A stretch of DNA of 44,929 nucleotides from Mogibacterium sp. (GTDB lineage Bacteria; Bacillota; Clostridia; Peptostreptococcales; Anaerovoracaceae). The notes beneath the pieces were generated by a model that saw only the letters and a list, made by a program, of their open reading frames with translations, was not told where the DNA came from and made no database searches. Each line of letters starts with the position of its first letter. Within the stretch, counting starts at the first letter, position 1. This document shows, one piece after another, positions 4,763 to 20,866 of the stretch. The stretch lies in assembly GCA_017515425.1 (NCBI GenBank), contig JAFWFU010000048.1, forward strand, positions 1-44,929. The letters run 5' to 3'. Both the position numbers and the translations under genes were made by a program.

Positions 4763-6154
4763 TTAAATCAGACTGCTGATTCCGCGCCTGAGATACCGCC
4801 CCGCACCCTTGCTGCCGAGAAATACATTATCCTCGACTATGAGGTTGCCGCGGGCGAATACCTTTTCAATCCTTCCCGTGAGATTGAAGCCTTCGTAGCA
4901 GGTATAGTCATTTGCGCCATGCATATCATCTATCGTGAGGATATGCTTTGCCTCGGGATTGAAAACGACTATATCTGCGTCTGCGCCGGGTATGATTGCT
5001 CCCTTTTTAGGATAGAGTCCGAAGATGCGCGCCGGCTCCGTGCAGCAGTATTTGACGAGCTGCGGCAGGCTTATCCTTCCCTTAGAAACTCCCTCGGAAT
5101 ACATGATTGGAAGCCTCTCTTCAACCCCCGGGGCGCCGTTCGGGCATTTTCTGAAATCGTCCTTTCCCATCTGCTTTTGCTCTTTAAATGTGAAGGGACA
5201 GTGATCCGTCGCAACGACGTCTATCATTCCGTCCCTGGCAAGCGCTGCCCAGAGCGCGTCATTATCCGCCTTCTTTCTCAGAGGCGGAGACATTATTGCC
5301 TTTAGTCCCTCTTGGTCGTCACTATAGGCTTCGTCCGTGAGCGCAAGATACTGCGTGCAGGTCTCTACACCGAAATGTTTCTGTCCTGATTCCCTTACCT
5401 TTATGACTTCCTTTAACCCTGCCTCGGAAGATAGGTGTACCACATATGCGGCTGCCTCTCCCGCCGCCTTCGCGATATGGAGCAGGCGGCTCACCGCCTC
5501 AGCCTCGGCGTCCGCAGGTCTTGCCAAGGGATGATATTTAGCCTGCAATTTGCCCAAAGCTCCGAGCTCAGCCTTTGTCAGCTCAACCAATGCGTCATTT
5601 TCACAATGCGCAGGTATCACCAAGCCCTCATCTGCGGCTGTTTTCAAAATCTTAAACAGCCATTCGTCGTCAATCATATTGTCGCCATATGTCATATAAG
5701 CCTTCCAGCTTGTAATGCCCTCGCGCCTCGCAATCTGCTTCATCTCTTCCAGCTTGGAATCATTCATAAGCTGGAGGACACCGTGAAATCCATAGTCTAT
5801 TACAGCATGTCCGTCCGCGAGCGCATGGTATGTATCGACCTGGTGCATAAGAGCTGCGTCGCCGGGAGCAAATGCCATATGGTCGACGACTGTGGTAGTT
5901 CCACCGCAGGCGGCTGCGATCGTTCCGCTCGTCCAATCGTCGCAGGCTCTTGTAAATCCCACGTCCAAATCCATATGCGTATGCACGTCAACCGCGCCCG
6001 GCAGCAATAGTCTTCCGCTTGCGTCTATTATCTCCGAATCAGCGCATTCAATATCCACGCCAACGCACTCGATAGTCTCTCCGTCTATCAGCACATCAGC
6101 CTTATACATATCCGCCTCAGTTACAATATTCGCATTTTTTATCAGTTTTTTCAT
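4763..6154 (-). CDS. hydA: Dihydropyrimidinase/hydantoinase-family cyclic amidohydrolase
   Basis: A 463-aa amidohydrolase with a complete binuclear metal site: H58 and H60 (DVHTHMD), K151 (the lysine that is carboxylated in the family, SWKAYMTY), H183 (PAHCEND), H240 (VVHLSS) and D317 (ATDHCPF). The family hydrolyses cyclic ureides such as dihydropyrimidines, hydantoins or allantoin. Length matches dihydropyrimidinase and the E. coli YgeZ/HyuA type, which also lies beside xdhABC. That shared context suggests ring opening of a purine or pyrimidine catabolite. The substrate cannot be decided from sequence. It is separated from xdhC by an intercistronic hairpin. Confidence 0.88.
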   Translation of the reverse strand: MKKLIKNANIVTEADMYKADVLIDGETIECVGVDIECADSEIIDASGRLLLPGAVDVHTHMDLDVGFTRACDDWTSGTIAAACGGTTTVVDHMAFAPGDAALMHQVDTYHALADGHAVIDYGFHGVLQLMNDSKLEEMKQIARREGITSWKAYMTYGDNMIDDEWLFKILKTAADEGLVIPAHCENDALVELTKAELGALGKLQAKYHPLARPADAEAEAVSRLLHIAKAAGEAAAYVVHLSSEAGLKEVIKVRESGQKHFGVETCTQYLALTDEAYSDDQEGLKAIMSPPLRKKADNDALWAALARDGMIDVVATDHCPFTFKEQKQMGKDDFRKCPNGAPGVEERLPIMYSEGVSKGRISLPQLVKYCCTEPARIFGLYPKKGAIIPGADADIVVFNPEAKHILTIDDMHGANDYTCYEGFNLTGRIEKVFARGNLIVEDNVFLGSKGAGRYLRRGISSLI

Positions 6155-6177: not shown

Positions 6178-6217
6178 ATATTCGCCGCCCGAATTCATTG
6201 AAATATATGGCGAATAT
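6178..6217 (-). terminator. Intercistronic hairpin between xdhC and the hydantoinase gene
   Basis: A perfect 9-bp inverted repeat, ATATTCGCC (6178-6186) and GGCGAATAT (6209-6217), with a 22-nt loop. On the minus strand it is followed by TTTTCTTACTGTT. It looks like a leaky terminator or an mRNA-stabilising stem that would set hydantoinase expression below that of xdhABC. Confidence 0.55.
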
Positions 6218-6234
6218 CATTGAGAGCAGGCGCC

Positions 6235-6795
6235 TTATTCAAACGGCATTGGATTCGGATATTCCGTAATGCCCTGCGAATTTACAAGCTCGGCTTCCTC
6301 ATTCTTGCCAAGCCTTCTCAGCATGGTCTTTTTGACCGCGCGGAAGATATTTTCATATCCCGTGCAGCGGCAGAGATGTCCCGACAACGCCTTTCTAAGC
6401 TCGTCATCCGTATATTCCCTGCCGGAATTCACTATTTCCCATGATGTCATAATAAATCCCGGAGAGCAGAAGCCGCATTGTATGGCTCCCTCATCTATGA
6501 ATGCCTGCTGAATATCCGAGAGCTCTCCTCCCTCGCCCGTCAGACCTTCGAGAGTCCAGATCTCCTTGCCCTCAGCCCATACAGCCAGGTAGATACAGGA
6601 GTTAAATCCCTCGCCGTCAATTATGACCGTGCAGGCTCCGCACTCGCCAACCTCGCAGCCCTTCTTGACCGAGGTCAGCCTATAGTCGTTTCTGAGCATA
6701 TCCGTCAGCGACGCCCTCACATCTACTATCTTTGAGACCTCTTTGCCGTTTATCTTGCAGTGTACCACCTTGTATTGATTATCCATTGATGACAC
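6235..6795 (-). CDS. xdhC: Xanthine dehydrogenase-type [2Fe-2S] subunit
   Basis: A 186-aa subunit with both clusters of the molybdenum hydroxylase family. The plant-ferredoxin-like cluster uses C47, C52, C55 and C67 (GCEVGECGAC). The second uses C107, C110, C142 and C144 (QCGFC and LCRCTGY). It moves electrons from the Mo site to FAD. The gene overlaps xdhB by 17 bp, so the two are likely translationally coupled. Met4 is an alternative start. It is the third gene of a Moco-FAD-FeS order identical to E. coli xdhABC; the symbol follows that usage. The unrelated maturation factor also called XdhC is a different protein. Confidence 0.93.
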   Translation of the reverse strand: MSSMDNQYKVVHCKINGKEVSKIVDVRASLTDMLRNDYRLTSVKKGCEVGECGACTVIIDGEGFNSCIYLAVWAEGKEIWTLEGLTGEGGELSDIQQAFIDEGAIQCGFCSPGFIMTSWEIVNSGREYTDDELRKALSGHLCRCTGYENIFRAVKKTMLRRLGKNEEAELVNSQGITEYPNPMPFE

Positions 6796-7666
6796 CTCCT
6801 GCCTGTTTAATGGAATTTCGAAGAGCTCGCTCAGCCATGACCACCGAGATATGGCGTCTTAATGCGCGTCCCGCACGCCAGCTGTTACGGGGATTGACGT
6901 CCTCGAGAACAGTCTCGGCGAACTTCTTAATATTCTCTTCATTTATATCCTTGCCGTTTAGGAATTCCTCGGCTGTATATGCTCTCATGGGAATAGGCGC
7001 AGCCACGCCGTAGCCGACTCTGACGCGCTCAATCCTTTTTTTATCCTCGCTGAGCCTCACATTCACCGAGCAACCCGTCGTCGTAATATCCAGGGCGTTT
7101 CTCATGGCGTATTTGATATAGTGTCCGTAACATCTGTCATAGGACTCCTTTGGAATGAGGATTGCCGTCTGAATTTCGGCAGGCTTCAAATCCACCACCT
7201 TCGCCTTGATATAGAAATCCTTGATAGACACTCTTCTGACGCCCTCTGCGCCTGTAATCTCAACAATAGCATCCCATGCCATTAGAGTCGAGGCGGAATC
7301 AGCGGAGGTCACTCCGTTGCAGGTATTACCACCTATTGTGCCTATAGCCCTTATCTGCGGCCCACCTACCATATCGACAGCCTCGCCCAAGACATTTATA
7401 TATTTCTGAATGATTGGGTCGTTAGTGATATGCGAGAAGCTCGTCAGAGATCCGATTCGGATATTCTCCTCTTCATCAATGCTTACGCCCCTCAGCTCAT
7501 CAAGCATATATATGCTGACAAGCTCTACTCCGGCTCGCCTTCCCTCGCGCACCTGAACGAGCACGTCGGAGCCGCCTGCGAGAATCTGCGCCTCTGGGTG
7601 CTCTTGGAGTAGTTCTATCGCGTGCTGAACGCTCTTCGCTTCGTATAATGCTTTTATATCATACAT
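6779..7666 (-). CDS. xdhB: Xanthine dehydrogenase-type FAD-binding subunit
   Basis: A 295-aa FAD subunit of the CO dehydrogenase flavoprotein family. The FAD pyrophosphate loop ILAGGSDVLVQ lies near residue 30, and the second FAD motif TIGGNTCNGVTSAD near 105. The start is MYDIKALYE, preceded by AGGGGGGA; the frame is open further upstream but lacks a ribosome site. It begins 19 bp after the xdhA stop and overlaps xdhC. It takes electrons from the [2Fe-2S] subunit and passes them to NAD+ or another acceptor. Confidence 0.92.
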   Translation of the reverse strand: MYDIKALYEAKSVQHAIELLQEHPEAQILAGGSDVLVQVREGRRAGVELVSIYMLDELRGVSIDEEENIRIGSLTSFSHITNDPIIQKYINVLGEAVDMVGGPQIRAIGTIGGNTCNGVTSADSASTLMAWDAIVEITGAEGVRRVSIKDFYIKAKVVDLKPAEIQTAILIPKESYDRCYGHYIKYAMRNALDITTTGCSVNVRLSEDKKRIERVRVGYGVAAPIPMRAYTAEEFLNGKDINEENIKKFAETVLEDVNPRNSWRAGRALRRHISVVMAERALRNSIKQAGGVING

Positions 7667-10297: not shown

Positions 10298-11098
10298 ATG
10301 GCAGAAAAACTGATTATAGCTCGGACGGCGGAGGAAGCCATTCGCGCCAAGACGGGCGAGAACGTCTATCTTGCCGGCGGCACTGAAATAATGCGTCTGG
10401 GTTCAAGCGTGAAAAGCGACGCCTTTGTATCGCTTCGCAAAATCCCTTCCATGCATGAGATCACAGCCGAAGCAGGCAATGTCTGCATTGGAGCCGCCTG
10501 CACTTTCCAAGAGATCTTAGACAGCGATATTGTTCCTTGCTATCTCAAGGAAGCCGCTAAGTTTATGGCGTCGAGGACTAAGCGCAATATGGCTACAATC
10601 GGCGGCAATATAGCGATAGCCGGAGACGATTCATTTCTCCTGCCTACTCATATCGCGGTCGGAGCGGAGCTTGTCCTCAAGGATTTAAGCGGTGAGGAAA
10701 GAGTATCAATAATCGACTTCCTATCCCAAACGGATAAATACAAGGGCAAGCTGATAAAAAGCGTCTGCCTTCCCGCGGGAAGTATCAGCGTCAAATCTTC
10801 AAGGTCTGCCAATACCGCTCAGAGCCATGCCAGGCTTACCGCCTGCCTCGCTCTGAGAGACGGTCAGTATTCGGCGGCAGCCGCGGTCAAGAACTCAGGA
10901 ATATATAAATTCTCCAAGCTCGCCGCAGCCATGCAGGAAGCTGATCCTTCCGAAGATGATATTATCGCACTCGTGAAGGCTGACGAGAGCATTACGCTCC
11001 AGGACGATTTGCTCTACGGCGGTGCCGACTATAGGAGATACCTGATTGGAATTACCTTCGCGCTGATGTATGAAGAGCTGAAAGGGGGACGTGCATAA
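10298..11098 (+). CDS. ygfM: FAD-binding subunit, YgfM-like
   Basis: A 266-aa flavoprotein subunit of the molybdenum hydroxylase family. It has VYLAGGTEIMRL near residue 25 and ATIGGNIAIAGDDS near 100, the two FAD-contact motifs. It is shorter than xdhB and resembles E. coli YgfM, which lies beside xdhD. GGAGG precedes the ATG at 7 nt. Its last codon overlaps the start of the xdhD-like gene (TAATG), so the two are coupled. The partner has a degenerate iron-sulfur domain, which leaves the electron path from Mo to this FAD unclear. Confidence 0.85.
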   Translation: MAEKLIIARTAEEAIRAKTGENVYLAGGTEIMRLGSSVKSDAFVSLRKIPSMHEITAEAGNVCIGAACTFQEILDSDIVPCYLKEAAKFMASRTKRNMATIGGNIAIAGDDSFLLPTHIAVGAELVLKDLSGEERVSIIDFLSQTDKYKGKLIKSVCLPAGSISVKSSRSANTAQSHARLTACLALRDGQYSAAAAVKNSGIYKFSKLAAAMQEADPSEDDIIALVKADESITLQDDLLYGGADYRRYLIGITFALMYEELKGGRA

Positions 11099-13980
11099 TG
11101 AAGATTCATTGCATTATCAACAGAATAGAAAGACAGTATGACGCAGATCCCAGAATGCGCCTTCGCGACTTCCTCGTATCTAAAGGGCATTTCGCGGTGC
11201 GCGACTCAGATGACGCGGAGGGATTCTGCGGTTCAGATACCATACTCGTAGACGGTATGCCCGTAATGTCCAACCTGATGATGGCAGGTGAAATCGACGG
11301 CTGTGAGATCCTCACGCCGGGCGGACTCGGCAATACCGAGAATCTGACTATCGTTCAGAAGGCTCTTATCGACGCGGGCGTGGTTCAGTCAGCATATAAT
11401 GCTCCGGCAGCCGCCCTTCTTCTCACATGGCTTTTGGAGAACAATCCGAATCCGAGCAAGGACGATATAAAGGACTGCCTCTCGGGTATTTTCATTCGCG
11501 ACGCAGGATATGAGCATTATTATCTTGCAGTCAAGCTGGCTCAGGAGATGATTAAGGACGGAGAGTATAAGACGGAAACCGCGCCGTCTTTCAGAGATGA
11601 ATATAAAGTCGTCGGCAAGCCGGGCGCAAAGGTGGACGGTCCCCAGCTCGTTTCCGGCGGGCGCGCCTTCGTAGAGGATTTCGTCGATTCAGATACCTGC
11701 TATATGGTCTGCGTCAGATCTCCTCACGCTTCCGCCTATGTGAACAGCATAGATACGGAAGAAGCCATGAAGGTGCCGGGAGTCGTCGAAATTCTGACCC
11801 CGTACAATACGCCTGAAACTCACTATATGCAGGCTGGTCAGGGGGAACCCGAACCTTCGCCCCATGACAGACGTCTCCTCAACCTCAAGGCTCGTCATGT
11901 AGGCGACAGAGTTGCGGCTGTAATCGCTGAGACTCTCGAGGCTGCTATCGAGGCAAGAGATAAGATAAAGGTTGATTGGGAAGTCCTTCCCGCGGTATTC
12001 ACCGTAGAGGAAGCCATGGCGGAGGGTGCTCCCCTCGTTCACGGCGGCCCCGTTGAGTATAGGGCGGGTGCGCCTGACGACCTCGACGAATACAATGCGA
12101 AACTGTCGAAGGATCCCCGTGAGGGAAAGGTTATCTATCAATTCCCTCTGCATGGAGATGTGCAGAAAAATATCGCTGCGGCAAACCACGGCGGCATTGG
12201 AGATGTGGATAAGGCATTTGCCGAGGCGGATGCTGTTGTCGAGGCGACTTTCCAGACCACGCAAATTCAGCATACGCCTCTCGAGACTCATATCTGCTTC
12301 GCCAAAATGGAAGCAGGCAGGCTCGTCGTAGTTGCTTCAACCCAGGTTCCCTACCATGTAAGGCGTATCTGCTCATGGGTTACGGGACTTCCGCAGAACA
12401 GGATTCACGTCATCAAGACGAGAGTCGGCGGCGGCTACGGTTCCAAACAGGATATTCTCGTAGAGGATTTGACGGGATATGCGGCATTTGCCACGGGTCG
12501 TCCCGTCCTCTATCACAATACACGCGAGGAAGAGTTTATCGCGAACTCCACGCGCCACCCCATGCGCGTGCACGTCAAAATGGGCGGTACCAAGGACGGC
12601 AGGCTGACCGCCGTCTATATGGATGTAAAGGCTAATACGGGTCCTTATGGCAACCACTGTCTTACGGTTCCCATGAACAGCTGCTCCAAGACCCTGCCGC
12701 TCTTCAAATGCGATAATATGAAATACGACCTCGAAATTTATTATACCAACTGCCCGCCTGCCGGTGCTTATCAGGGCTATGGTACGCCTAAGGGCACCTA
12801 CGGTCTGATGATGGTAATGTGCGAACTTGCGGAGAAGCTCGGCATCGACTATAAGGACTTTGTGCTGAACAACCATGTAGACGAAGGATATATGCTCGAA
12901 ATTCTAAAGGGTCTCGGAGAAGGACGCGAAGGAAATGTCGTGCCTGTCGGATCCTGCGGACTCAGAGAATGTATTGAAAAGGGCTGCGAGATGATTGAAT
13001 GGGGCAAGAAGGAAGAGTCCCCTGACCCTGATTGGAAGATTGGTAAAGGTTTTGCCATGATTATGCAGGGTTCGGGTCTGCCCGGTCTCGACCACGCTGA
13101 GGCTATCGCCAAGCTGACTACGGACGGTAATGTGATCCTTCACAGCGGCGGTGCCGATATTGGAACAGGGCTCGACACTATTTCCGCTAAGATTGTGTCA
13201 GAACTCATCTGCATAGATATGGATAGGATTACAGTCCTTTCGGGAGATACGGACGGCTCCGTATTCGATACGGGTTCCTATGCCTCATCAGGTACTTTCT
13301 TCTCAGGCGGAGCTTCGCTTGAAGCCACCAAGAAGCTGAAGGAAGCAATGCTAAAGGAAGCCGCTTTGCAAATGGAAGAAGATTCAGCCGACCTTGAGCT
13401 CAGATACCCAGGAGAAGTCCACTCCACCAAGACGGACAAGGTTCTCTCCTACTACGAGCTCTCCCATACAGCCTGCGGCGGAGAGGGTCGCGGCGAAATG
13501 GTCGGTCACGGCGTATTCGTAACGAAGGCTTCATCTGTTCCTTATGGAGCGCATTTCGCTCAGGTAGCGGTCAATATCAAGACGGGCGAGGTCAAGGTTC
13601 AGAAGTTCTACGCACTCCAAGACGCCGGAACTCCTATCAATCCTGAAATCGCGCTCTGTCAGATGTACGGCGCGGCTCTCAAATCCATAGGACATACTCT
13701 CTATGAGGATATGATACTCGACGAGAAGGGAGTCTGTATCAACGCCAATATGACGGACTACGGCGTGCCTATGATAAGCGAGCAGCCTGACGACTTCAAG
13801 GCGGTGCTCGTAGATGTAAAGGACGAATTCGGGCCTATGGGTGCTAAGTCCATTTCCGAAATCGCCTGCAACGGCGCAGCACCAGCCATAGGAAATGCAA
13901 TACATGACGCCTGCGGCGTATGGATAAGAACATGGCCTATGACACCGGAGAAGATACTCAAGGCGCTCGGAAGGTTTTAA
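11098..13980 (+). CDS. xdhD: XdhD-like molybdopterin dehydrogenase with degenerate Fe-S domain
   Basis: A 960-aa protein, about the length of E. coli XdhD. Residues 1-145 have the size and layout of the [2Fe-2S] domain, but seven of the eight cluster cysteines are replaced. Only C44 remains; the others align with D39, D47, S58, S98, N101, I133 and D135. From about 165 on it is a full Moco domain: TRVGGGYGSKQD (441-452), GAYQGYGTPKG (556-566) and GAKSISEIAC with E921. The usual Arg of the RGF/RGY motif is Gln559. E. coli XdhD, as I recall it, has the same losses, so this is a family trait and not decay. A substrate other than xanthine is likely. Confidence 0.88.
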   Translation: MKIHCIINRIERQYDADPRMRLRDFLVSKGHFAVRDSDDAEGFCGSDTILVDGMPVMSNLMMAGEIDGCEILTPGGLGNTENLTIVQKALIDAGVVQSAYNAPAAALLLTWLLENNPNPSKDDIKDCLSGIFIRDAGYEHYYLAVKLAQEMIKDGEYKTETAPSFRDEYKVVGKPGAKVDGPQLVSGGRAFVEDFVDSDTCYMVCVRSPHASAYVNSIDTEEAMKVPGVVEILTPYNTPETHYMQAGQGEPEPSPHDRRLLNLKARHVGDRVAAVIAETLEAAIEARDKIKVDWEVLPAVFTVEEAMAEGAPLVHGGPVEYRAGAPDDLDEYNAKLSKDPREGKVIYQFPLHGDVQKNIAAANHGGIGDVDKAFAEADAVVEATFQTTQIQHTPLETHICFAKMEAGRLVVVASTQVPYHVRRICSWVTGLPQNRIHVIKTRVGGGYGSKQDILVEDLTGYAAFATGRPVLYHNTREEEFIANSTRHPMRVHVKMGGTKDGRLTAVYMDVKANTGPYGNHCLTVPMNSCSKTLPLFKCDNMKYDLEIYYTNCPPAGAYQGYGTPKGTYGLMMVMCELAEKLGIDYKDFVLNNHVDEGYMLEILKGLGEGREGNVVPVGSCGLRECIEKGCEMIEWGKKEESPDPDWKIGKGFAMIMQGSGLPGLDHAEAIAKLTTDGNVILHSGGADIGTGLDTISAKIVSELICIDMDRITVLSGDTDGSVFDTGSYASSGTFFSGGASLEATKKLKEAMLKEAALQMEEDSADLELRYPGEVHSTKTDKVLSYYELSHTACGGEGRGEMVGHGVFVTKASSVPYGAHFAQVAVNIKTGEVKVQKFYALQDAGTPINPEIALCQMYGAALKSIGHTLYEDMILDEKGVCINANMTDYGVPMISEQPDDFKAVLVDVKDEFGPMGAKSISEIACNGAAPAIGNAIHDACGVWIRTWPMTPEKILKALGRF

Positions 13981-14178: not shown

Positions 14179-15351
14179 CTAAAATATGAAATCGCCGGAT
14201 TTACCGCCTGTCTTGGAGACGAGATGAATATCTTTAATCTCCATGCGTTTGTCCACAGCCTTGCACATATCATAGACTGTCAGAAGCGCGATAGAGACTC
14301 CTGTAAGGGCTTCCATTTCAACACCCGTCTTGCCTTCTGATTCAGCCGTGCAGACAGCCTTAATCTCGCAGGCTTCCTCGTCGATTTCGAATTCCAGCTT
14401 TGCATTTGTAAGGGCGATAGGGTGACATAATGGTATAAGATCCGAGGTTTTCTTCGTGCCCATAATGCCTGCCAACTGAGCGACCGTAAGGACGTCACCC
14501 TTCTTTATCTTCTTGCCCAGCACGGCGTCCATGGCTTCGGGGCTCATCTTAATGCTGCCCTCGGCTTTGGCAGTCCTCTTCGTGATGTCCTTGCCGCTGA
14601 CATCTACCATATATGCGTTTCCTCTTTCATCAAAATGTGTAAATTCCTTCATCTCAGTTTTCTCCGCCTCGCAGGTCTTTGTTGCAGCATTGCAGACTCT
14701 ATGATTTATAACTTTTCCGCCGCTGATCTCGAGCAGTTCCTCGGAAAATCTCTCCAGCTCTTCTAAATTGTGAGATACCATTATCACCTGCCCCTGATAA
14801 TCGCTCAGCATTTCCTCCATTTCCGTCTGCATTCTTTCTCTCATAAAGCTGTCTAGGGCGGAAAAGGGTTCGTCCAGCAAAATCAGCCCGGGTTCCGTCA
14901 CCATAATGCGGGCGAGAGCAACCCTCTGCTGCTGACCGCCCGAGAGTTCTCCCGGCAGTTTTCTCTCGAAATCTTCCATATTAAACCTGGCGAGCATTTC
15001 GCGCGCCTTGGTCTTATTCTCTTCGGAAGCACCGCCTCTGAGCCCTGCCATAACATTTTTCAGCACGCTCATGGTCGGAAAAAGCGCATAGTTTTGGAAC
15101 ATATATCCGACATTTCTCATCTGCGGCTTCAAGTTTGTCCTCTCGGCAGAGTCAAAGAGAATGCGCCCAGCCATTTCTATCCTGCCGCTATCCACTTCCT
15201 CTATGCCCGCAATGCTCCTGAGTGTCATGCTCTTTCCGCTGCCAGAAGCGCCGAGAATTCCTATCCTCTTCGCATTGCTTTTAATCAGCACGTCGAGCTC
15301 GAATTCGCCTATTTTCTTATGTATATCCGCATATAGTTTCATCATCTGCAT
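14179..15351 (-). CDS. modC: ModC-MoaC fusion: molybdate ABC ATPase joined to cyclic pyranopterin synthase
   Basis: A 390-aa two-domain protein. Residues 1-225 are an ABC ATPase: Walker A GASGSGKS (34-41), Q-loop FQNYALFP, signature LSGGQQQR (136-143), Walker B LILLDEP (156-162). The TOBE/Mop domain usual in ModC is absent. Residues 234-390 are a complete Moa[33 protein letters not shown], and DMCKAVD with D361 and K364, which match Asp128 and Lys131 of E. coli MoaC. One chain thus joins molybdate uptake to the second step of Moco synthesis. An internal ATG with its own GGAG site could also yield free MoaC. Last gene of the molybdenum operon. Confidence 0.9.
14650..14665 (-). promoter_or_regulatory. 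Internal ribosome site and start codon for MoaC
   Basis: On the minus strand GGAG (14665-14662) lies 9 nt before an in-frame ATG (14652-14650) inside the ModC-MoaC gene. Translation from there gives 157 aa, the size of free-standing MoaC, beginning [11 protein letters not shown]. It could supply extra MoaC, which acts as a hexamer. Confidence 0.5.
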
Positions 15352-15371: not shown

Positions 15372-16076
15372 CTACCATTTTCTAATATTCTTCATCTGCC
15401 TGCCCGCAATCATATTTATGGCAAATACCGCGAGGAAAGCTATGAGCATGACTATGATGACCCAAAATCCCGCAGTCTGATAGTCTCCGTCCTGGATTAC
15501 CATGGCTATCCTCTGAGATACGGTACCCGTCTTTCCCGGGATATTTCCGGCGAGCATTGATGTTGCCCCGTATTCTCCCATGGCGCGTGCAAATGTGAGT
15601 ATCGTTCCGCTGGCTATGCCGGGGCCTGCGGTCGGCACCACTACGCGCCAGAATATCTTGGCGTCGGACATGCCGAGTGTCCTTCCCGCATATACGAGGT
15701 TGGCGTCTATCTGTTCAAAGGCAGCTCGCGCGTTTCTATACATCAGAGGAAACGCGATTACTGTCGCAGCAAGTATGCATCCAAGCCATGTATGCACCGC
15801 TTGGATGCCGAGCTGCTCATCTAAAAACATTCCGAAAGCTCTCCTTCTGCTGAAAATAATCAAGAGGAAAAAACCCGCCACCGTCGGCGGCAGCACCATG
15901 GGAAGAGTAAGAAGTCCGTCAATGACGGACTTCGCCCTGTAATTCATTTTTATTACTTTGCGCGCTGCCCAAAGACCGAGGAAAAAGGATATAGCAGTCG
16001 CCACCACTCCGGTCTTGAGCGAGATCCAGAGCGGACTCCAATCCAGCCTTCCGGCAATTTCAAAGAAATTTCCCAA
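15372..16076 (-). CDS. modB: Molybdate ABC transporter permease ModB
   Basis: A 234-aa inner-membrane permease with about five hydrophobic segments and the EAA loop near residues 135-155 (GRTLGMSDAKIFWRVVVP), which contacts the ATPase ModC. LPMVLPPTVAGFFLL near 60 is typical of ModB. The start codon is TTG behind TGGAGG. It lies between modA and the modC-moaC fusion, with about 20 bp to the latter. Confidence 0.92.
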   Translation of the reverse strand: MGNFFEIAGRLDWSPLWISLKTGVVATAISFFLGLWAARKVIKMNYRAKSVIDGLLTLPMVLPPTVAGFFLLIIFSRRRAFGMFLDEQLGIQAVHTWLGCILAATVIAFPLMYRNARAAFEQIDANLVYAGRTLGMSDAKIFWRVVVPTAGPGIASGTILTFARAMGEYGATSMLAGNIPGKTGTVSQRIAMVIQDGDYQTAGFWVIIVMLIAFLAVFAINMIAGRQMKNIRKW

Positions 16077-16148: not shown

Positions 16149-17015
16149 CTACTCCACATCGGTATCAAAGCCATATTTCTGATACAATGCCTTCGCCTCA
16201 TCATTCGTGATAAAGGCTAGGAAGTCAGCAGCCGCAGCATTCTCCACATCATCAGCATCCTTGTTGACTATCTGCGCCACAGGATAGATGATATTTCCCG
16301 TCACATCATAGCCGACAGTCTCAAGGATCTTAACCTTATCCTCATGTCCGACAGTATCTGATAGATAAGTTGTGCCTACCTCGCATGAACCTTCCTCAAT
16401 CGCCGCGAGCACCTTCGATACATTACCCTGCTCGCTGATTTCAACGCCGCCAAGCTGTTCCGAAACCTCAGCAGTCGTAATGGCAGCCGGATCCTCTGCT
16501 TTTCCAAGGAGCCCCAGCTTAATCATAGCCTGGCGAGTGTATTTGCCTACGGGCACGCTCCCGTCGGCGAGGGCGATACTCTTGGCGTTTGCTATATCGG
16601 CAAGCCCCGTAACGGCAGTATCGCTGTCAGGCTGAGTAACCACTACGAGCTGATTGTTCACGACGTTTTGACGCGTTCCCTCAACCACTAAAGCTATGCC
16701 TTCAAGCTCGTCCATCTGCTTCTGTGCAGCGCTGAAAAATATATCGCAGGGAGCGCCTTCCTGAATTTGAGTAAGGAGGGCACCCGAGCTGTCAGCATTG
16801 ATAACAATATCTATATTCTCATTTGCCGCCTCATAGTCAGCCTCAAGCTCTCCCATTACAGCAGAAAGAGAGGCTGCCGCAAATACATTTACACTAATCT
16901 TTTCCGCGGGAGCGCTGCTATCTTCTCCTCCCTCATCTTTTCCGCCGCCACAGGCGGCCATTGCGAATACCATGACAAAAGCCATAACAAATGCTAATAA
17001 TTTCTTCTTCATCAT
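16149..17015 (-). CDS. modA: Molybdate-binding lipoprotein ModA
   Basis: A 288-aa extracytoplasmic binding protein. A lipoprotein signal ends at C22 (FAMAAC), followed by a Gly/Asp/Glu tether. The mature part begins SVNVFAAASLSAVMGE, the ModA signature where the Ser side chains bind the oxyanion. GNVSKVLAAIEEGSCEVGTTYLSD fits the hinge region of the family. It feeds ModB and the ModC half of the fusion. It has its own promoter inside the 3' end of the upstream MOSC-Mog gene. Selectivity for molybdate over tungstate cannot be told. Confidence 0.92.
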   Translation of the reverse strand: MMKKKLLAFVMAFVMVFAMAACGGGKDEGGEDSSAPAEKISVNVFAAASLSAVMGELEADYEAANENIDIVINADSSGALLTQIQEGAPCDIFFSAAQKQMDELEGIALVVEGTRQNVVNNQLVVVTQPDSDTAVTGLADIANAKSIALADGSVPVGKYTRQAMIKLGLLGKAEDPAAITTAEVSEQLGGVEISEQGNVSKVLAAIEEGSCEVGTTYLSDTVGHEDKVKILETVGYDVTGNIIYPVAQIVNKDADDVENAAAADFLAFITNDEAKALYQKYGFDTDVE

Positions 17016-17092: not shown

Positions 17093-17121
17093 ATTATAGT
17101 CGATTTGTTTTTAAAAAGCAA
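17093..17121 (-). promoter_or_regulatory. Internal promoter for modA-modB-modC/moaC
   Basis: On the minus strand TTGCTT (17121-17116) and TATAAT (17098-17093) are 17 bp apart. The -10 overlaps the stop codon of the MOSC-Mog gene. Transcription would start near 17086 and leave a leader of about 70 nt before modA. It allows uptake genes to be expressed apart from the biosynthesis genes upstream. Confidence 0.65.
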
Positions 17122-18044
17122 TCGCCGTCTCGATCCAGCATTATCGAAAGACCGTGTTCAAGCGGCTCGAGTATATATTCCAGGCATTCCCTGACCGCCT
17201 TGGGGCTTCCCGGCAGATTTATTATGAGCGTTCTCCCCCTCATTCCAGCTGCGCCTCTCGACAGCATTGCTTTAGGAGTCTTAGTCATTGAATATGCCCT
17301 TATCGCCTCCGCTATTCCCGGAGTCATTCTATCGCATACGGCAGTCGTCGCCTCGGGCGTCATATCACGTGGAGACATTCCCGTGCCGCCTGTAGTGAAT
17401 ATGATATTCACCTGTCTTTGATCCGCTAGTCTTACGAGCTCCGCTTTTAATCTCTCAGGCTCGTCAGGCAATAGCAAGCCCTCAACCACATCATATCCCG
17501 CGGCAGAGAGGATTTCTCCGATAAGGGGGCCGCTTATATCTTCCCTCTCTCCCGCTGAGCCCTTATCCGAAAGCGTTATCCACGCCGCAGTAAAGGATTT
17601 GTTCGAATCAGCCTCTATCAATTCCACCTCGTCGCCAGCCTTGACAAGTCCGCCTTCTATCACGACGGTAAATACGCCCTCTCTTGGCATGATACAGTCT
17701 CCGACCTGATGAAAAATGGCACAGTGAGTATGGCATTCCTTTCCTATCTGAGTGAGCTCGAGAATCGCCTCGCCTATTTTGAAGCGCGTGCCGACGGGAA
17801 GAGTCTTTAAATCAAAGCCCTCTACTATGATATTCTCCCCGAAAGCCCCAAACTCTACCTCGGCTCCGCGCGCCATAAACTCTTCAATGCTTTCAAGCGA
17901 TAGGAGACTCACCTGCCTATGCCAATTCCCCGCATGGGCGTCACCCACTATTCCGTGTTCAGGTCTCAGCACTATCGAGTCAGCCTCAGTCTTTGCCGTA
18001 CCCTTCTTTTCACTTTTACATACTGCGATTATTTTCCCTGTCAT
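17094..18044 (-). CDS. MOSC-domain/MogA fusion protein
   Basis: A 316-aa two-domain protein. Residues 1-145 form a MOSC domain (HGIVGDAHAGNWHRQVSLLS, FGENIIVEG, then CHTHCAIFHQVGDCIMPREGVF with three Cys). MOSC domains are found with Moco sulfuration and delivery. Residues 150-316 form a MoaB/Mog domain with TTGGTGMSPRDMTPEATT (217-234) and INLPGSPKAV, as in molybdopterin adenylyltransferase, which activates molybdopterin for metal insertion. Fusions of these two domains occur in other Clostridia. It lies between moaA and modA in the molybdenum operon. Confidence 0.9.
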   Translation of the reverse strand: MTGKIIAVCKSEKKGTAKTEADSIVLRPEHGIVGDAHAGNWHRQVSLLSLESIEEFMARGAEVEFGAFGENIIVEGFDLKTLPVGTRFKIGEAILELTQIGKECHTHCAIFHQVGDCIMPREGVFTVVIEGGLVKAGDEVELIEADSNKSFTAAWITLSDKGSAGEREDISGPLIGEILSAAGYDVVEGLLLPDEPERLKAELVRLADQRQVNIIFTTGGTGMSPRDMTPEATTAVCDRMTPGIAEAIRAYSMTKTPKAMLSRGAAGMRGRTLIINLPGSPKAVRECLEYILEPLEHGLSIMLDRDGDCFLKTNRL

Positions 18045-18161: not shown

Positions 18162-19124
18162 TTAACCACCTATCTCCGCCATTGCATGATGATCTACCTC
18201 TTTTATATTCTCGAAGCAATGTGCCGCAGGTTTGAACCTTATTATCTCCTCAAGAGCCTGTTTCAGCTCCTTATCCCCCTTCTCCAAATACGGACGGATA
18301 AAAACGCCGTCCTCATAGCAAAGGCATGGTTTTATATAGCCCATGGACGTCAGCCTGATTCTATTGCAGCTTTCGCAAAAGCTGTCATTGATTGCGCTGA
18401 TAAAGCCAATGCTTCCTCGCTTGCCGGAAATCCTATAGTATCTGGCGGGGCCGTTTCCATGCCTGCTCTCGTCCGCTTTCATCTCAGGATAAACTTCTTT
18501 TATCCGCCGCATAGTCTCCCTATTGCTTATGCCTTTTTCCGCGTCAGCGATTCCTATGGGCATAAGCTCTATAAACCTTATATCTATGCCCTTGCTGAGA
18601 GCGAAGTCTACAAGTTCGATTACATCGTCCTCATTGAAATCCCTCTGAACTATGCAGTTGAGCTTTGTCTTTATGCCGTGCTCAATGCTAAGTTCAACCG
18701 CTTCCAGGGTCTTTTGCAAATCCCCAAGCCGAGTCATCTCTTTGTACCTCTCAGGCTTCAATGTATCGAGGCTTATATTGATTCCGTCAATTCCTATCTC
18801 CGTCAATTCTTCTAAATGCGGCGCCAATAACTGCCCGTTCGTAGTCATGGTGATTTCTTTGCAGCCTTGGAGTTTTCTCATTCCTCTCAGGAGCTCCATT
18901 AAGTCATACCTCACCAGCGGCTCGCCGCCCGTAATCTTAAACTTGTCTATCCCGAGCTCGATAGCCGCAGAACAAATCCTCAGGATTTCCTCATAGCCCA
19001 AAATCCTGCTCTTATCCACCTTTTGAATACCCTCTTTCGGCATGCAGTATTTGCACCTCAGATCACATCTGTCGGTGACCGATATTCTCATATAGTCTAT
19101 AGTTCTGCCATAGCCATCAAGCAT
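18162..19124 (-). CDS. moaA: GTP 3',8-cyclase MoaA
   Basis: A 320-aa radical SAM enzyme that converts GTP to 3',8-cyclo-GTP, the first step of Moco synthesis. The N-terminal [4Fe-4S] motif has C20, C24 and C27 (TDRCDLRCKYCMP). The C-terminal cluster uses C250, C253 and C267 (FCESCNRIRLT, KPCL). ITGGEPL is the SAM-side GGE motif, and the chain ends in the Gly-Gly typical of MoaA. The start MLDGYGRTIDY was chosen because AGGGAGG lies 11 nt before it. It begins 5 bp after the stop of the MoeA-like gene, so coupling is likely. Confidence 0.93.
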   Translation of the reverse strand: MLDGYGRTIDYMRISVTDRCDLRCKYCMPKEGIQKVDKSRILGYEEILRICSAAIELGIDKFKITGGEPLVRYDLMELLRGMRKLQGCKEITMTTNGQLLAPHLEELTEIGIDGINISLDTLKPERYKEMTRLGDLQKTLEAVELSIEHGIKTKLNCIVQRDFNEDDVIELVDFALSKGIDIRFIELMPIGIADAEKGISNRETMRRIKEVYPEMKADESRHGNGPARYYRISGKRGSIGFISAINDSFCESCNRIRLTSMGYIKPCLCYEDGVFIRPYLEKGDKELKQALEEIIRFKPAAHCFENIKEVDHHAMAEIGG

Positions 19125-19129
19125 AGCGG

Positions 19130-20161
19130 CTAATATCCTCCCTTTCCAAATCCGCAATTAGGATATGTGCAGATATTGCAATTCAGGCATAACCCGCCCT
19201 CTCCGAGCATGGCAAAATCATCTGGCATAAGTATTTCGCCCGCCGCAATCCTCGGCAGGACTATATCGAATATGGTTCTCTTCGCATACATCACACAGCC
19301 CGGAAGCCCCAGCACGGGAATCTTCTCCTCTCCGTAATAGGCGAGGAGAAACATTGCGCCGGGAAGGACAGGCGCGCCATATGTAACAACGCTGCCGCAT
19401 ATATTTCTTATGGCAAGCGGAGTCTTGTCGTCCGGATCCACGCTCATGCCTCCGGTGCAGACTATCATTTCCGTGCCGCCATCAAGCAGCTTTTTAATAG
19501 CCTTCTCTATATTCTCACTATCATCATTCACCGTCTCATGTCCGCAAAGGCTATAGCCGAATTCCTCCAGCTTTTCAACCACAACGGGTGTGAAGGTGTC
19601 CTCTATCCTTCCGTGGAAAACCTCATTCCCCGTCGTAACGATTCCCACCCTGCGGCTTGGAAATGGAATTATATTCAGAATAGGCTCCTCGCCGCAGAGC
19701 CATCTAATCTCTTCCATTTTCTCACGCTCTATAACAAGCGGGATAATCCTCGTGCCGGCTATCCTATCCCCCTTCTTTACAGGGAAGTCGCCATGCCGAG
19801 TTGCTATCATCATCTGTCCGAAGGAATTGATGACCCTGAGTTTCTCCCTGTCAATCTTGAGTAGCCCGTCGCATTCCGCACTTAGTTCAATCTTTCCTTC
19901 CTTAACCTCGCCCCTGCTGATATTAGCACCCTTGCAAATAGTGCAAAGGAGCTCAGCCGCCTCATTCTCGTGCATCATGCTCTCATCATTTTCCCAGACA
20001 TAGATATTATCCTTTCCGATTGAAAGCAAAACGGGAATATCGCATTCCCTGATTACATGACCTTTGCGAAACACCGCGTCCTTCATCACGCCTTTTATTA
20101 TTTGAGTCATATCGTGGCAGATTACCTGTCCGACAGCGTCTTCCGTCTTTATAAGCTTCAT
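19130..20161 (-). CDS. MoeA-like molybdopterin-binding protein with Cys-rich tail
   Basis: A 343-aa protein. The MoCF_biosynth/MoeA-type domain spans about 170-315: RRVGIVTTGNEVFHG, then CTGGMSVDPDDKTPLA, then VLPGAMFLLAYY and VLGLPGCV. The N-terminal 170 residues are unlike classical MoeA domains. The C terminus carries C325, C328, C331 and C336 (CLNCNICTYPNCGFGKG), a CxxCxxCx4C array that could bind a metal or an Fe-S cluster. Similar proteins lie near molybdenum hydroxylase genes in other anaerobes. Metal insertion into molybdopterin is the likely role. Second gene of the operon. Confidence 0.8.
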   Translation of the reverse strand: MKLIKTEDAVGQVICHDMTQIIKGVMKDAVFRKGHVIRECDIPVLLSIGKDNIYVWENDESMMHENEAAELLCTICKGANISRGEVKEGKIELSAECDGLLKIDREKLRVINSFGQMMIATRHGDFPVKKGDRIAGTRIIPLVIEREKMEEIRWLCGEEPILNIIPFPSRRVGIVTTGNEVFHGRIEDTFTPVVVEKLEEFGYSLCGHETVNDDSENIEKAIKKLLDGGTEMIVCTGGMSVDPDDKTPLAIRNICGSVVTYGAPVLPGAMFLLAYYGEEKIPVLGLPGCVMYAKRTIFDIVLPRIAAGEILMPDDFAMLGEGGLCLNCNICTYPNCGFGKGGY

Positions 20162-20182: not shown

Positions 20183-20310
20183 CCGTCAATTTATACTTTC
20201 CTAGGTCTATACTCCCGTCAATCTATACCTCTTTCAGCCTATGCTTCCGTAAATCAATATTTCCCTCAGTCTGTACGCCCGTCAGTCTATTCTTCCTTCA
20301 ATCTAAAGCC
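20183..20310. repeat. Exact-period 16-bp tandem repeat, eight units
   Basis: Eight consecutive 16-bp units with no insertion or deletion and plus-strand consensus CCGTCARTCTATACTT. Unit 1 starts at 20183 and unit 8 at 20295. The last unit contains the stop codon of the modE-like gene (20303-20305). The units fill the gap to the MoeA-like gene. The units differ from one another, so the array is not a recent slippage product. Confidence 0.85.
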
Positions 20311-20671
20311 CGTGCTTTGCCGCAATCTCAGGAAATCTCCTAGCCGCCGCCTTGGAAAGCTCCGCCTCAAGCTCATCATATACAGCCATCAGTCTATGAC
20401 CCTTTTCCGTCACCTTGGCTGCGCCGCCTGACTGTCCGCCCGCCTGGCGCTCCACTATCTTATATCCCAATTCTTCCTCGCACCGCTTTAATATCGTCCA
20501 GCCCTTGCTGTATGAGAACCCGCATCTCTCGCAGGCATCCCTTACATTGCCGCATATATCTATCTCTCTCAGCAAGCTCACCGGACCGGGGCCGAAGAAC
20601 TTGTTCTCACTGACAAACATCAGCTTTACAGCAGGGTGAAGTATTCCGGCTTCTTTCTTTTTCATAGGCAT
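20303..20671 (-). CDS. ModE-type winged-helix regulator, DNA-binding domain only
   Basis: About 122 aa. It matches the N-terminal LysR-like winged helix of ModE: PGPVSLLREIDICGNVRDAC, then GFSYSKGWTILKRCEEELGYKIVERQ, then GGQSGGAAKVTEKG. The molybdate-binding Mop/TOBE domains of full ModE are missing, so metal sensing must occur otherwise. It is the first gene of the molybdenum operon and probably controls it. The ATG at 20671 has AGAGAG 6 nt upstream. A TTG at 20689 and an ATG at 20665 are alternatives. Confidence 0.82.
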   Translation of the reverse strand: MPMKKKEAGILHPAVKLMFVSENKFFGPGPVSLLREIDICGNVRDACERCGFSYSKGWTILKRCEEELGYKIVERQAGGQSGGAAKVTEKGHRLMAVYDELEAELSKAAARRFPEIAAKHGL

Positions 20672-20866
20672 TTCTTTCTCTCTGCGCAAAATTGTTTAGC
20701 TTTTTGCTATCGCCTTTCTTAAATGTTTTCGAAAAGCTTTTTCGCGACTGCATTTGCAAAAGTTTCTCACGATTGTTATCTCAGTTTTACGGTTGTTTGT
20801 CGCGATTTCTTTTTCTTAGCAAATCGCTTCTCATAATTAAACGGCTCTCCCAAGCCGCTCGCTATA
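20672..20866 (-). promoter_or_regulatory. Long structured leader of the molybdenum operon
   Basis: About 190 nt lie between the predicted transcription start and the first gene. On the minus strand it contains CGGCT-TGGGAG-AGCCG (20857-20842) and GCGATTT...AAATCGC (20827-20802), plus further AGCTTTT-rich stretches. A leader of this length before Moco genes suggests a Moco-type riboswitch or attenuator, but I could not match it to the known consensus. Confidence 0.35.

What the first reader, a model, noticed from the sequence alone, without database searches (positions are those of the whole stretch)
14179..15351. ModC-MoaC fusion with a hidden start for free MoaC
One reading frame joins a molybdate-import ATPase lacking the usual TOBE/Mop domain to a complete MoaC, with D361/K364 matching the MoaC catalytic pair. 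An internal ATG with GGAG at 9 nt would also make a 157-aa MoaC. Uptake and cofactor synthesis may be physically coupled at the membrane, with free MoaC completing the hexamer. The missing TOBE domain also removes the usual molybdate feedback site on the ATPase.
Basis: partly seen in the sequence, partly recalled or inferred. Interest (0 to 1): 0.72.

Follow-up and report, generated by a model that had tools for sequence, protein, structure and literature searches.

The report
Molybdate-importer ATPase fused to MoaC
In one bacterium the gene for the motor of a molybdate pump has run into the neighbouring gene for an early molybdenum-cofactor enzyme, giving one two-part protein and probably a free copy of the enzyme too; a second bacterium shows the same kind of join, probably formed separately, so it is most likely real, but a local gene merger rather than a new machine.

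Summary
The minus-strand frame 14179-15351 encodes a ModC-type ATPase without its ~130-aa C-terminal domain, a ~17-aa linker and a complete MoaC, the only MoaC found in the genome. The internal ATG with GGAG at 9 nt is there; its Shine-Dalgarno match is typical of unfused moaC genes in relatives. Searches of 349 family, 393 order, 391 class and 398 phylum genomes (overlapping samples, two listings cut) showed one other fusion, G281, in another genus of the family, with a different junction and a strong ribosome site before MoaC. ModC+MoaC together reject one origin (p-AU 8.5e-5); ModC alone (p 0.19) and MoaC alone do not. The sister species has the short ATPase unfused. In one related genus moaC directly follows modC in 13 of 14 loci read. 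Best reading: a real operon-neighbour fusion, MoaC probably also made alone. MoaC acts before metal insertion, so uptake-synthesis channelling is unlikely. The lost domain is not Pfam TOBE even in six full-length relatives, so lost feedback is unproven. No independent reads. New variant of a known kind.

The parts
14179..15351 (-). fused modC-moaC gene, 390 aa from first ATG (387-388 aa if it starts at M3/M4)
   Evidence: open frame; Pfam ABC_tran + MoaC; sole MoaC match in the genome
14704..15351 (-). ModC nucleotide-binding domain, residues 1-216; Walker A 34-41, LSGGQ 136-140, D160-E161, H194
14653..14703 (-). linker, residues 217-233; stands where relatives have a ~130-aa C-terminal domain
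14662..14665 (-). GGAG, internal Shine-Dalgarno-like site 9 nt before the MoaC ATG
14182..14652 (-). MoaC domain, M234 to residue 390 (157 aa), internal ATG at 14650-14652
14260..14271 (-). codons of D361 to K364, MoaC active-site pair (MoaC 128 and 131)
15372..16076 (-). modB, permease, directly upstream
   Evidence: TIGR02141 over cut-off
16149..17015 (-). modA, molybdate-binding protein
   Evidence: TIGR01256 over cut-off
17094..18044 (-). MOSC-MoaB two-domain protein
18162..19157 (-). moaA (start uncertain)
   Evidence: TIGR02666 over cut-off
19130..20161 (-). MoeA-like molybdopterin-binding protein
   Evidence: PF00994
20303..20689 (-). ModE-like DNA-binding protein, HTH part only
   Evidence: TIGR00637 65.5 bits, below its cut-off of 98.5

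Best explanation
This is most likely a genuine in-frame fusion of two neighbouring genes of one molybdenum operon. It yields a polypeptide of about 43 kDa: a ModC ATPase without its C-terminal domain, a short linker and a complete MoaC. Each half most likely does its ordinary job: the ATPase pairs with ModB and powers molybdate import, and MoaC turns the MoaA product into cPMP. A moaC ribosome site survives inside the fused gene, so a free 157-aa MoaC is probably made as well and could assemble with or apart from the tethered copies. The fusion ties the dose and location of MoaC to the transporter but does not channel molybdate, because MoaC acts before the metal step. Shown: frame, domains, active-site residues, single MoaC match, gene order, second fusion. 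Inferred: that both halves are active, that free MoaC is made, and that the join arose by deletion or stop loss between adjacent genes.
For: Domains and residues intact; only MoaC match in the genome, beside modA, modB, moaA and MOSC-moaB. Second fusion G281: 395 aa, other genus, also its only MoaC match. modC and moaC are neighbours in relatives: moaC starts 8-83 nt after the modC stop in 13 of 14 genus-g50 loci read (14 of the 32 g50 genomes that matched, chosen for strong hits), and 10 and 42 nt after it in G008 and G015; it follows closely in G031. The C-terminal domain is missing in 3 of 29 ModC loci read in the genus: G000, its ModC sister G029 and, on another branch, G031, so it can be lost without fusion. 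Internal SD -7.3 kcal/mol here and -8.8 in G281, within the range of 19 unfused moaC starts (-3.7 to -10.2), while the candidate modC starts score -3.1 to -3.3. Pairwise against G029: pN 0.15 (ModC) and 0.17 (MoaC), pS 0.74 and 0.72.
Against: Single draft assembly (53 contigs, about 90% complete), no second genome of the species and no reads; one wrong base at a stop could mimic a fusion. The anti-SD letters used were recalled, not taken from this genome. The pN/pS comparison spans time before the fusion. The unfused sister does not tell whether fusion or domain loss came first. ModC alone and MoaC alone do not exclude one origin for both fusions. Neither MoaE nor a MoaD/ThiS-type protein was found in the genome, so a complete cofactor pathway is not established.
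Confidence: 0.72

Rival explanations
1. Functional replacement: MoaC has taken the place of the ATPase's C-terminal domain as a regulator, so that the state of the pterin pathway (MoaC substrate or product) tunes molybdate import.
For: In both fusions MoaC sits where, or just after where, the C-terminal domain of other ModC proteins begins; no Pfam TOBE match in the genome; no Rfam match, so no recognised Moco riboswitch, in the window.
Against: A single deletion from inside modC into the moaC leader gives both changes at once, so their co-occurrence needs no selection; G029 and G031 lost the domain without gaining MoaC. The lost domain is not shown to be regulatory.
Confidence: 0.1
2. One reading: the fusion physically couples molybdate uptake to cofactor synthesis at the membrane.
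For: Tethering at the membrane follows if the full-length protein joins ModB (inference from the ModB and ATPase matches).
Against: MoaC's reaction does not use molybdate; the metal is inserted later (pathway knowledge; cPMP step order in PMC2408646, passages). The internal start would release free MoaC.
Confidence: 0.08
3. Assembly or base-calling artefact: modC and moaC are separate genes and a stop codon was lost in the assembly.
For: Only one genome of the species; several linker codons are one base from a stop; the two other C-domain-less ModC genes of the genus end at about residue 217 with a normal stop.
Against: A fusion of the same two genes exists in G281 with another junction; assembly errors are rare per base (general knowledge).
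Confidence: 0.08
4. Only the full-length fusion is made; the internal ATG is a relic.
For: 8 of 138 other internal ATGs in window genes have as strong an SD match; the age of the fusion is unknown.
Against: Met and SD are kept exactly at MoaC residue 1 in both fusions.
Confidence: 0.25

Closest known systems
MoaC fusions to itself, MoaE or MoaB in Archaea (PMC11237513, passages read); NCBIfam MoaC/MoaB, MoaC/MOSC and MoaC/MobA models
   Same: MoaC joined to another molybdenum-cofactor protein; the paper says such fusions could result from frameshifts in conserved syntenic blocks
   Different: Partners there are cofactor enzymes; here it is the transporter ATPase. In the NCBIfam models MoaC is the N-terminal part, here the C-terminal part
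Archaeoglobus ModBC-A type transporter (PDB 2onk, ATPase chain of 240 aa; organism recalled)
   Same: Molybdate/tungstate ATPase with no long C-terminal domain (length; absence of the domain recalled)
   Different: No fused enzyme
[quoted passage not shown]
   Same: Same ATPase class within ModABC
   Different: Carries a C-terminal molybdate-binding domain; here that region is gone
Genes yielding a long and a short product by internal initiation (e.g. Cas11b, PMC11899642, search listing and start of abstract only)
   Same: In-frame internal start gives a C-terminal product
   Different: Shown by experiment there, inferred here

Membership tests
MoaC (cPMP synthase) | Full-length match to MoaC models over cut-off | tested here: met
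   PF01967 136 of 136 positions; TIGR00581 and PRK09364 over cut-off
MoaC (cPMP synthase) | Ligand-site Lys, His, Asp, Lys (Lys62, His88, Asp137, Lys140 of M. tuberculosis MoaC2, PMC3602415, passages) | tested here: met
   K284, H310, D361, K364 fit those numbers by the end points of the 4fdf row (234-387 on 12-163); that alignment itself was not printed
MoaC (cPMP synthase) | Hexamer and cPMP synthase activity | not testable with these tools
   needs protein
ModC molybdate-import ATPase | ABC motifs intact and gene beside modA and modB | tested here: met
   ModA and ModB over NCBIfam cut-offs
ModC molybdate-import ATPase | NCBIfam TIGR02142 cut-off (353-position model) | tested here: not met
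   175.6 bits against 285; two full-length relatives (179.6, 197.9) and C-domain-less G031 (176.3) also miss it, so it does not separate this clade; called ModC here by gene context and works-like, not by this model
ModC molybdate-import ATPase | C-terminal TOBE/regulatory domain | tested here: not met
   absent; no PF03459 in the genome at E up to 1; not matched in six full-length relatives either
Known MoaC fusion families (MoaC/MoaB, MoaC/MOSC, MoaC/MobA) | Match over the bifunctional models' cut-offs | tested here: not met
   184.5 against 285, 200.8 against 457, 141.3 against 606 bits; only the MoaC part matches

The most novel reading that the evidence does not exclude
Twice in one bacterial family MoaC has been fused in place of the C-terminal domain of the molybdate-import ATPase. 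The enzyme may act as a new regulatory domain that lets the pterin pathway gate metal import, with an internal start supplying free MoaC subunits to form mixed hexamers that cluster transporters.
Probability: 0.1. Interest if true: 0.75.

Novelty: new variant of a known kind. Interest (0 to 1): 0.42.

Why it matters
It adds a transporter ATPase to the known fusion partners of MoaC and gives two natural, probably separately formed proteins, plus unfused relatives with and without the C-terminal domain, for testing whether the ModC C-terminal domain is dispensable and whether tethering a cofactor enzyme to the importer changes uptake.

Tried and rejected
Other fusions: the genome search gave open_frame_aa values of 455-768 for several ModC or MoaC rows. 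Reading the DNA showed stops before moaC in G015, G202, G200, G172, G205 and G272, and ordinary ModC ends, some with long upstream frames, in G1142, G991, G527, G342, G727 and G900; that column was not used as evidence. G139 (a stop inside modC) and G124 and G148 (no moaC in the stretch) were also read. Part's output was cut; one search repeats the gene gaps.

One origin for both fusions: ModC alone does not reject it (p-AU 0.19; 56-row quick tree, L080, L122, L123, L124 and L135 dropped of 61). MoaC alone puts the two apart, but its well-supported branches do not rule out one origin (31 rows). ModC plus MoaC rejects it (p-AU 8.5e-5, 31 rows, L080 and L123 dropped); G000, G029 and G281 held together, a group I named after seeing the tree, gives p 0.033. 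G281 lies on a long branch, where such tests are less safe.

TOBE: no match in six full-length relatives; a profile of their C-terminal region found one unrelated PDB chain at E 0.65. No Rfam match at gathering score in the window. Promoter and terminator scans were near shuffle levels (13 against a mean of 9.5, sd 3.1; 8 against 5.3, sd 2.0), with no listed minus-strand promoter just upstream of the internal ATG. In one search the TTG starts of moaA and the ModE-like gene gave near-zero SD values; they are probably wrong starts. One search was an empty placeholder.

Literature: ModC/MoaC/fusion (6 papers), MoaC/fusion protein/molybdenum cofactor/ABC transporter (6 papers), the phrase ModC-MoaC (0 papers) and MoaC domain/molybdate/ATP-binding (653 papers, 8 listed) showed no title on this fusion; passages of PMC11237513 and PMC2408646 were read. 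Most subscription papers are not held. sought ModC regulation, MoaC residues and precedents for fusions and internal starts.

Full report
WHAT IS THERE. The frame 14179-15351 is real, on the minus strand, 390 aa from the first ATG. Pfam finds ABC_tran at 27-163 and a complete MoaC at 248-383. The ATPase motifs and the MoaC ligand-site residues are in place. The genome (1,725,877 bases, 53 contigs, about 90% complete) gives one MoaC match, this one. Upstream on the same strand lie modB, modA, MOSC-MoaB, moaA, a MoeA-like gene and a ModE-like gene; on the other strand, at 10298-13980, lie molybdenum-hydroxylase genes.

THE JUNCTION. The ATPase half ends at about residue 216, where most relatives continue for about 130 residues. 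MoaC begins with M234. Between them lie 17 residues. The ATG of M234 (14650-14652) has GGAG 9 nt upstream. The best match of its leader to a recalled anti-SD is -7.3 kcal/mol; 8 of 138 other internal ATGs in eleven window genes do as well, and the candidate modC starts score -3.1 to -3.3. Among 19 unfused moaC starts of relatives the values run from -3.7 to -10.2, and 10 of 19 are no stronger than the internal one here (for G031 the script found no start).

RELATIVES IN THE GENUS. All 47 genus genomes held were searched with the fusion protein (match list cut at its weak end). 29 ModC loci, this one included, were read: 26 are 347-361 aa counted from the start of the match, and 3 of 29 lack the C-terminal domain (G000, G029, G031). 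ModC matches in G010 (split over contigs) and G045 were not read. G029 is the ModC sister of G000 (support 100/99; 96/98 in the concatenated tree). Its 217-aa ModC ends in a stop, and an unrelated gene whose product contains a GGDEF-like stretch (my reading) separates it from moaC. G031 has a 217-aa ModC with moaC close behind in another frame. In G008 and G015 full-length modC is followed by moaC after 10 and 42 nt. No other genome of the genus gave a listed row spanning both domains.

A SECOND FUSION. In the family search (349 genomes, E up to 1e-40) one other genome, G281 of another genus, matched residues 3-387 in one row. Its protein is 395 aa from the ATG read here: ATPase, a linker that still carries what looks like the start of the old C-terminal region, and MoaC. 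It is that genome's only MoaC match. Its MoaC begins with a Met that has AAGGAG five bases before it, -8.8 kcal/mol, matched by 3 of the 138 window ATGs. Order (393, E up to 1e-50), class (391, 1e-50) and phylum (398, 1e-55) searches, which overlap with each other and with the family set, listed no further spanning row. The match lists were cut, so weak or very distant fusions may be missed; a fusion that keeps the C-terminal domain would show as two rows, and long frames were therefore read by hand.

ONE ORIGIN OR TWO. ModC alone cannot reject a G000+G281 clade (p-AU 0.19). MoaC alone places them apart, but its well-supported branches do not exclude one origin. ModC with MoaC rejects it (31 rows, p-AU 8.5e-5). 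G281 is on a long branch. The different junctions and the unfused sister of G000 point the same way. I take two origins as likely, not proven.

HOW IT AROSE. In 13 of 14 loci of genus g50 (14 of the 32 g50 genomes matched, picked for strong hits) moaC starts 8-83 nt after the stop of a full-length modC; in the 14th it is 1,995 nt away. With that order a deletion from inside modC to just before the moaC ribosome site fuses the genes and removes the C-terminal domain in one step; this fits G281 well. For G000 the domain loss may have come first, since G029 lacks it too. This is inference.

HOW IT MOST LIKELY WORKS. The full-length protein joins ModB as the import ATPase and carries MoaC into the cytoplasm; free MoaC is probably also made. 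MoaA and MoaC make cPMP before the MoaD/MoaE step (PMC2408646, passages) and before metal insertion (pathway knowledge), so molybdate cannot be handed to MoaC. Both halves look constrained (pN 0.15 and 0.17 against pS 0.74 and 0.72 relative to G029), but that comparison covers time before the fusion. A caution: neither MoaE nor a MoaD/ThiS-type protein was found in this genome.

THE MISSING DOMAIN. PMC4031551 (passages) names direct inhibition through the ModC regulatory domain in M. acetivorans. Here the C-terminal region of six full-length relatives matches no TOBE model, and a profile of eight such regions finds no credible solved chain. So what was lost is the lineage's own C-terminal domain, of unproven function. 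The genome has no PF03459 match at E up to 1, while 12 of 14 control genomes have one.

KNOWN OR NEW. MoaC fusions with itself, MoaE and MoaB are described for Archaea (PMC11237513, passages), and NCBIfam holds MoaC/MoaB, MoaC/MOSC and MoaC/MobA models. A ModC-MoaC fusion was not found in the paper searches. It is a new variant of a known kind: modest interest, raised by the second occurrence, lowered by the simple operon-fusion explanation and the lack of reads.

Noticed in passing
whole genome G000 and genus: No MoaE (PF02391) match in 45 of 47 genus genomes, this one included, and no ThiS/MoaD-family match in this genome, although moaA, moaC and molybdenum-hydroxylase genes are present here. 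G008 and G015 have a divergent MoaE-like protein (L137, L136) that finds no relative in the other 45. Many of these genomes are incomplete (18 of 47 pass the 90% completeness and 5% contamination bar; 1 of those 18 matched). How molybdopterin is made here is open.
   Followed up: partly
window 11098-13980 (+): 960-aa xanthine-dehydrogenase-like protein whose Fer2_2 region (residues 75-146) has, read by eye, one Cys where the usual [2Fe-2S] motif (recalled) has four; the preceding N-terminal region also seems to lack most cluster cysteines. It may be a molybdenum hydroxylase that has lost both clusters.
   Followed up: no
window 20303-20689 (-) and whole genome: The ModE-like regulator is only a DNA-binding part, and no Pfam TOBE match exists in the genome, so neither usual protein sensor of molybdate is recognisable.
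   Followed up: partly
window 17094-18044 (-): MOSC and MoaB domains lie in one protein, so this operon holds two two-domain mergers.
   Followed up: no
L139 (G031) 6215-6859 and L138 (G029) 4817-5470: Two further ModC proteins without the C-terminal domain, on separate branches of the genus tree.
   Followed up: yes
Genome search output, open_frame_aa column: Values of 525-768 aa were given for six loci where a stop codon lies between modC and moaC; the column overstates open frames there.
   Followed up: yes
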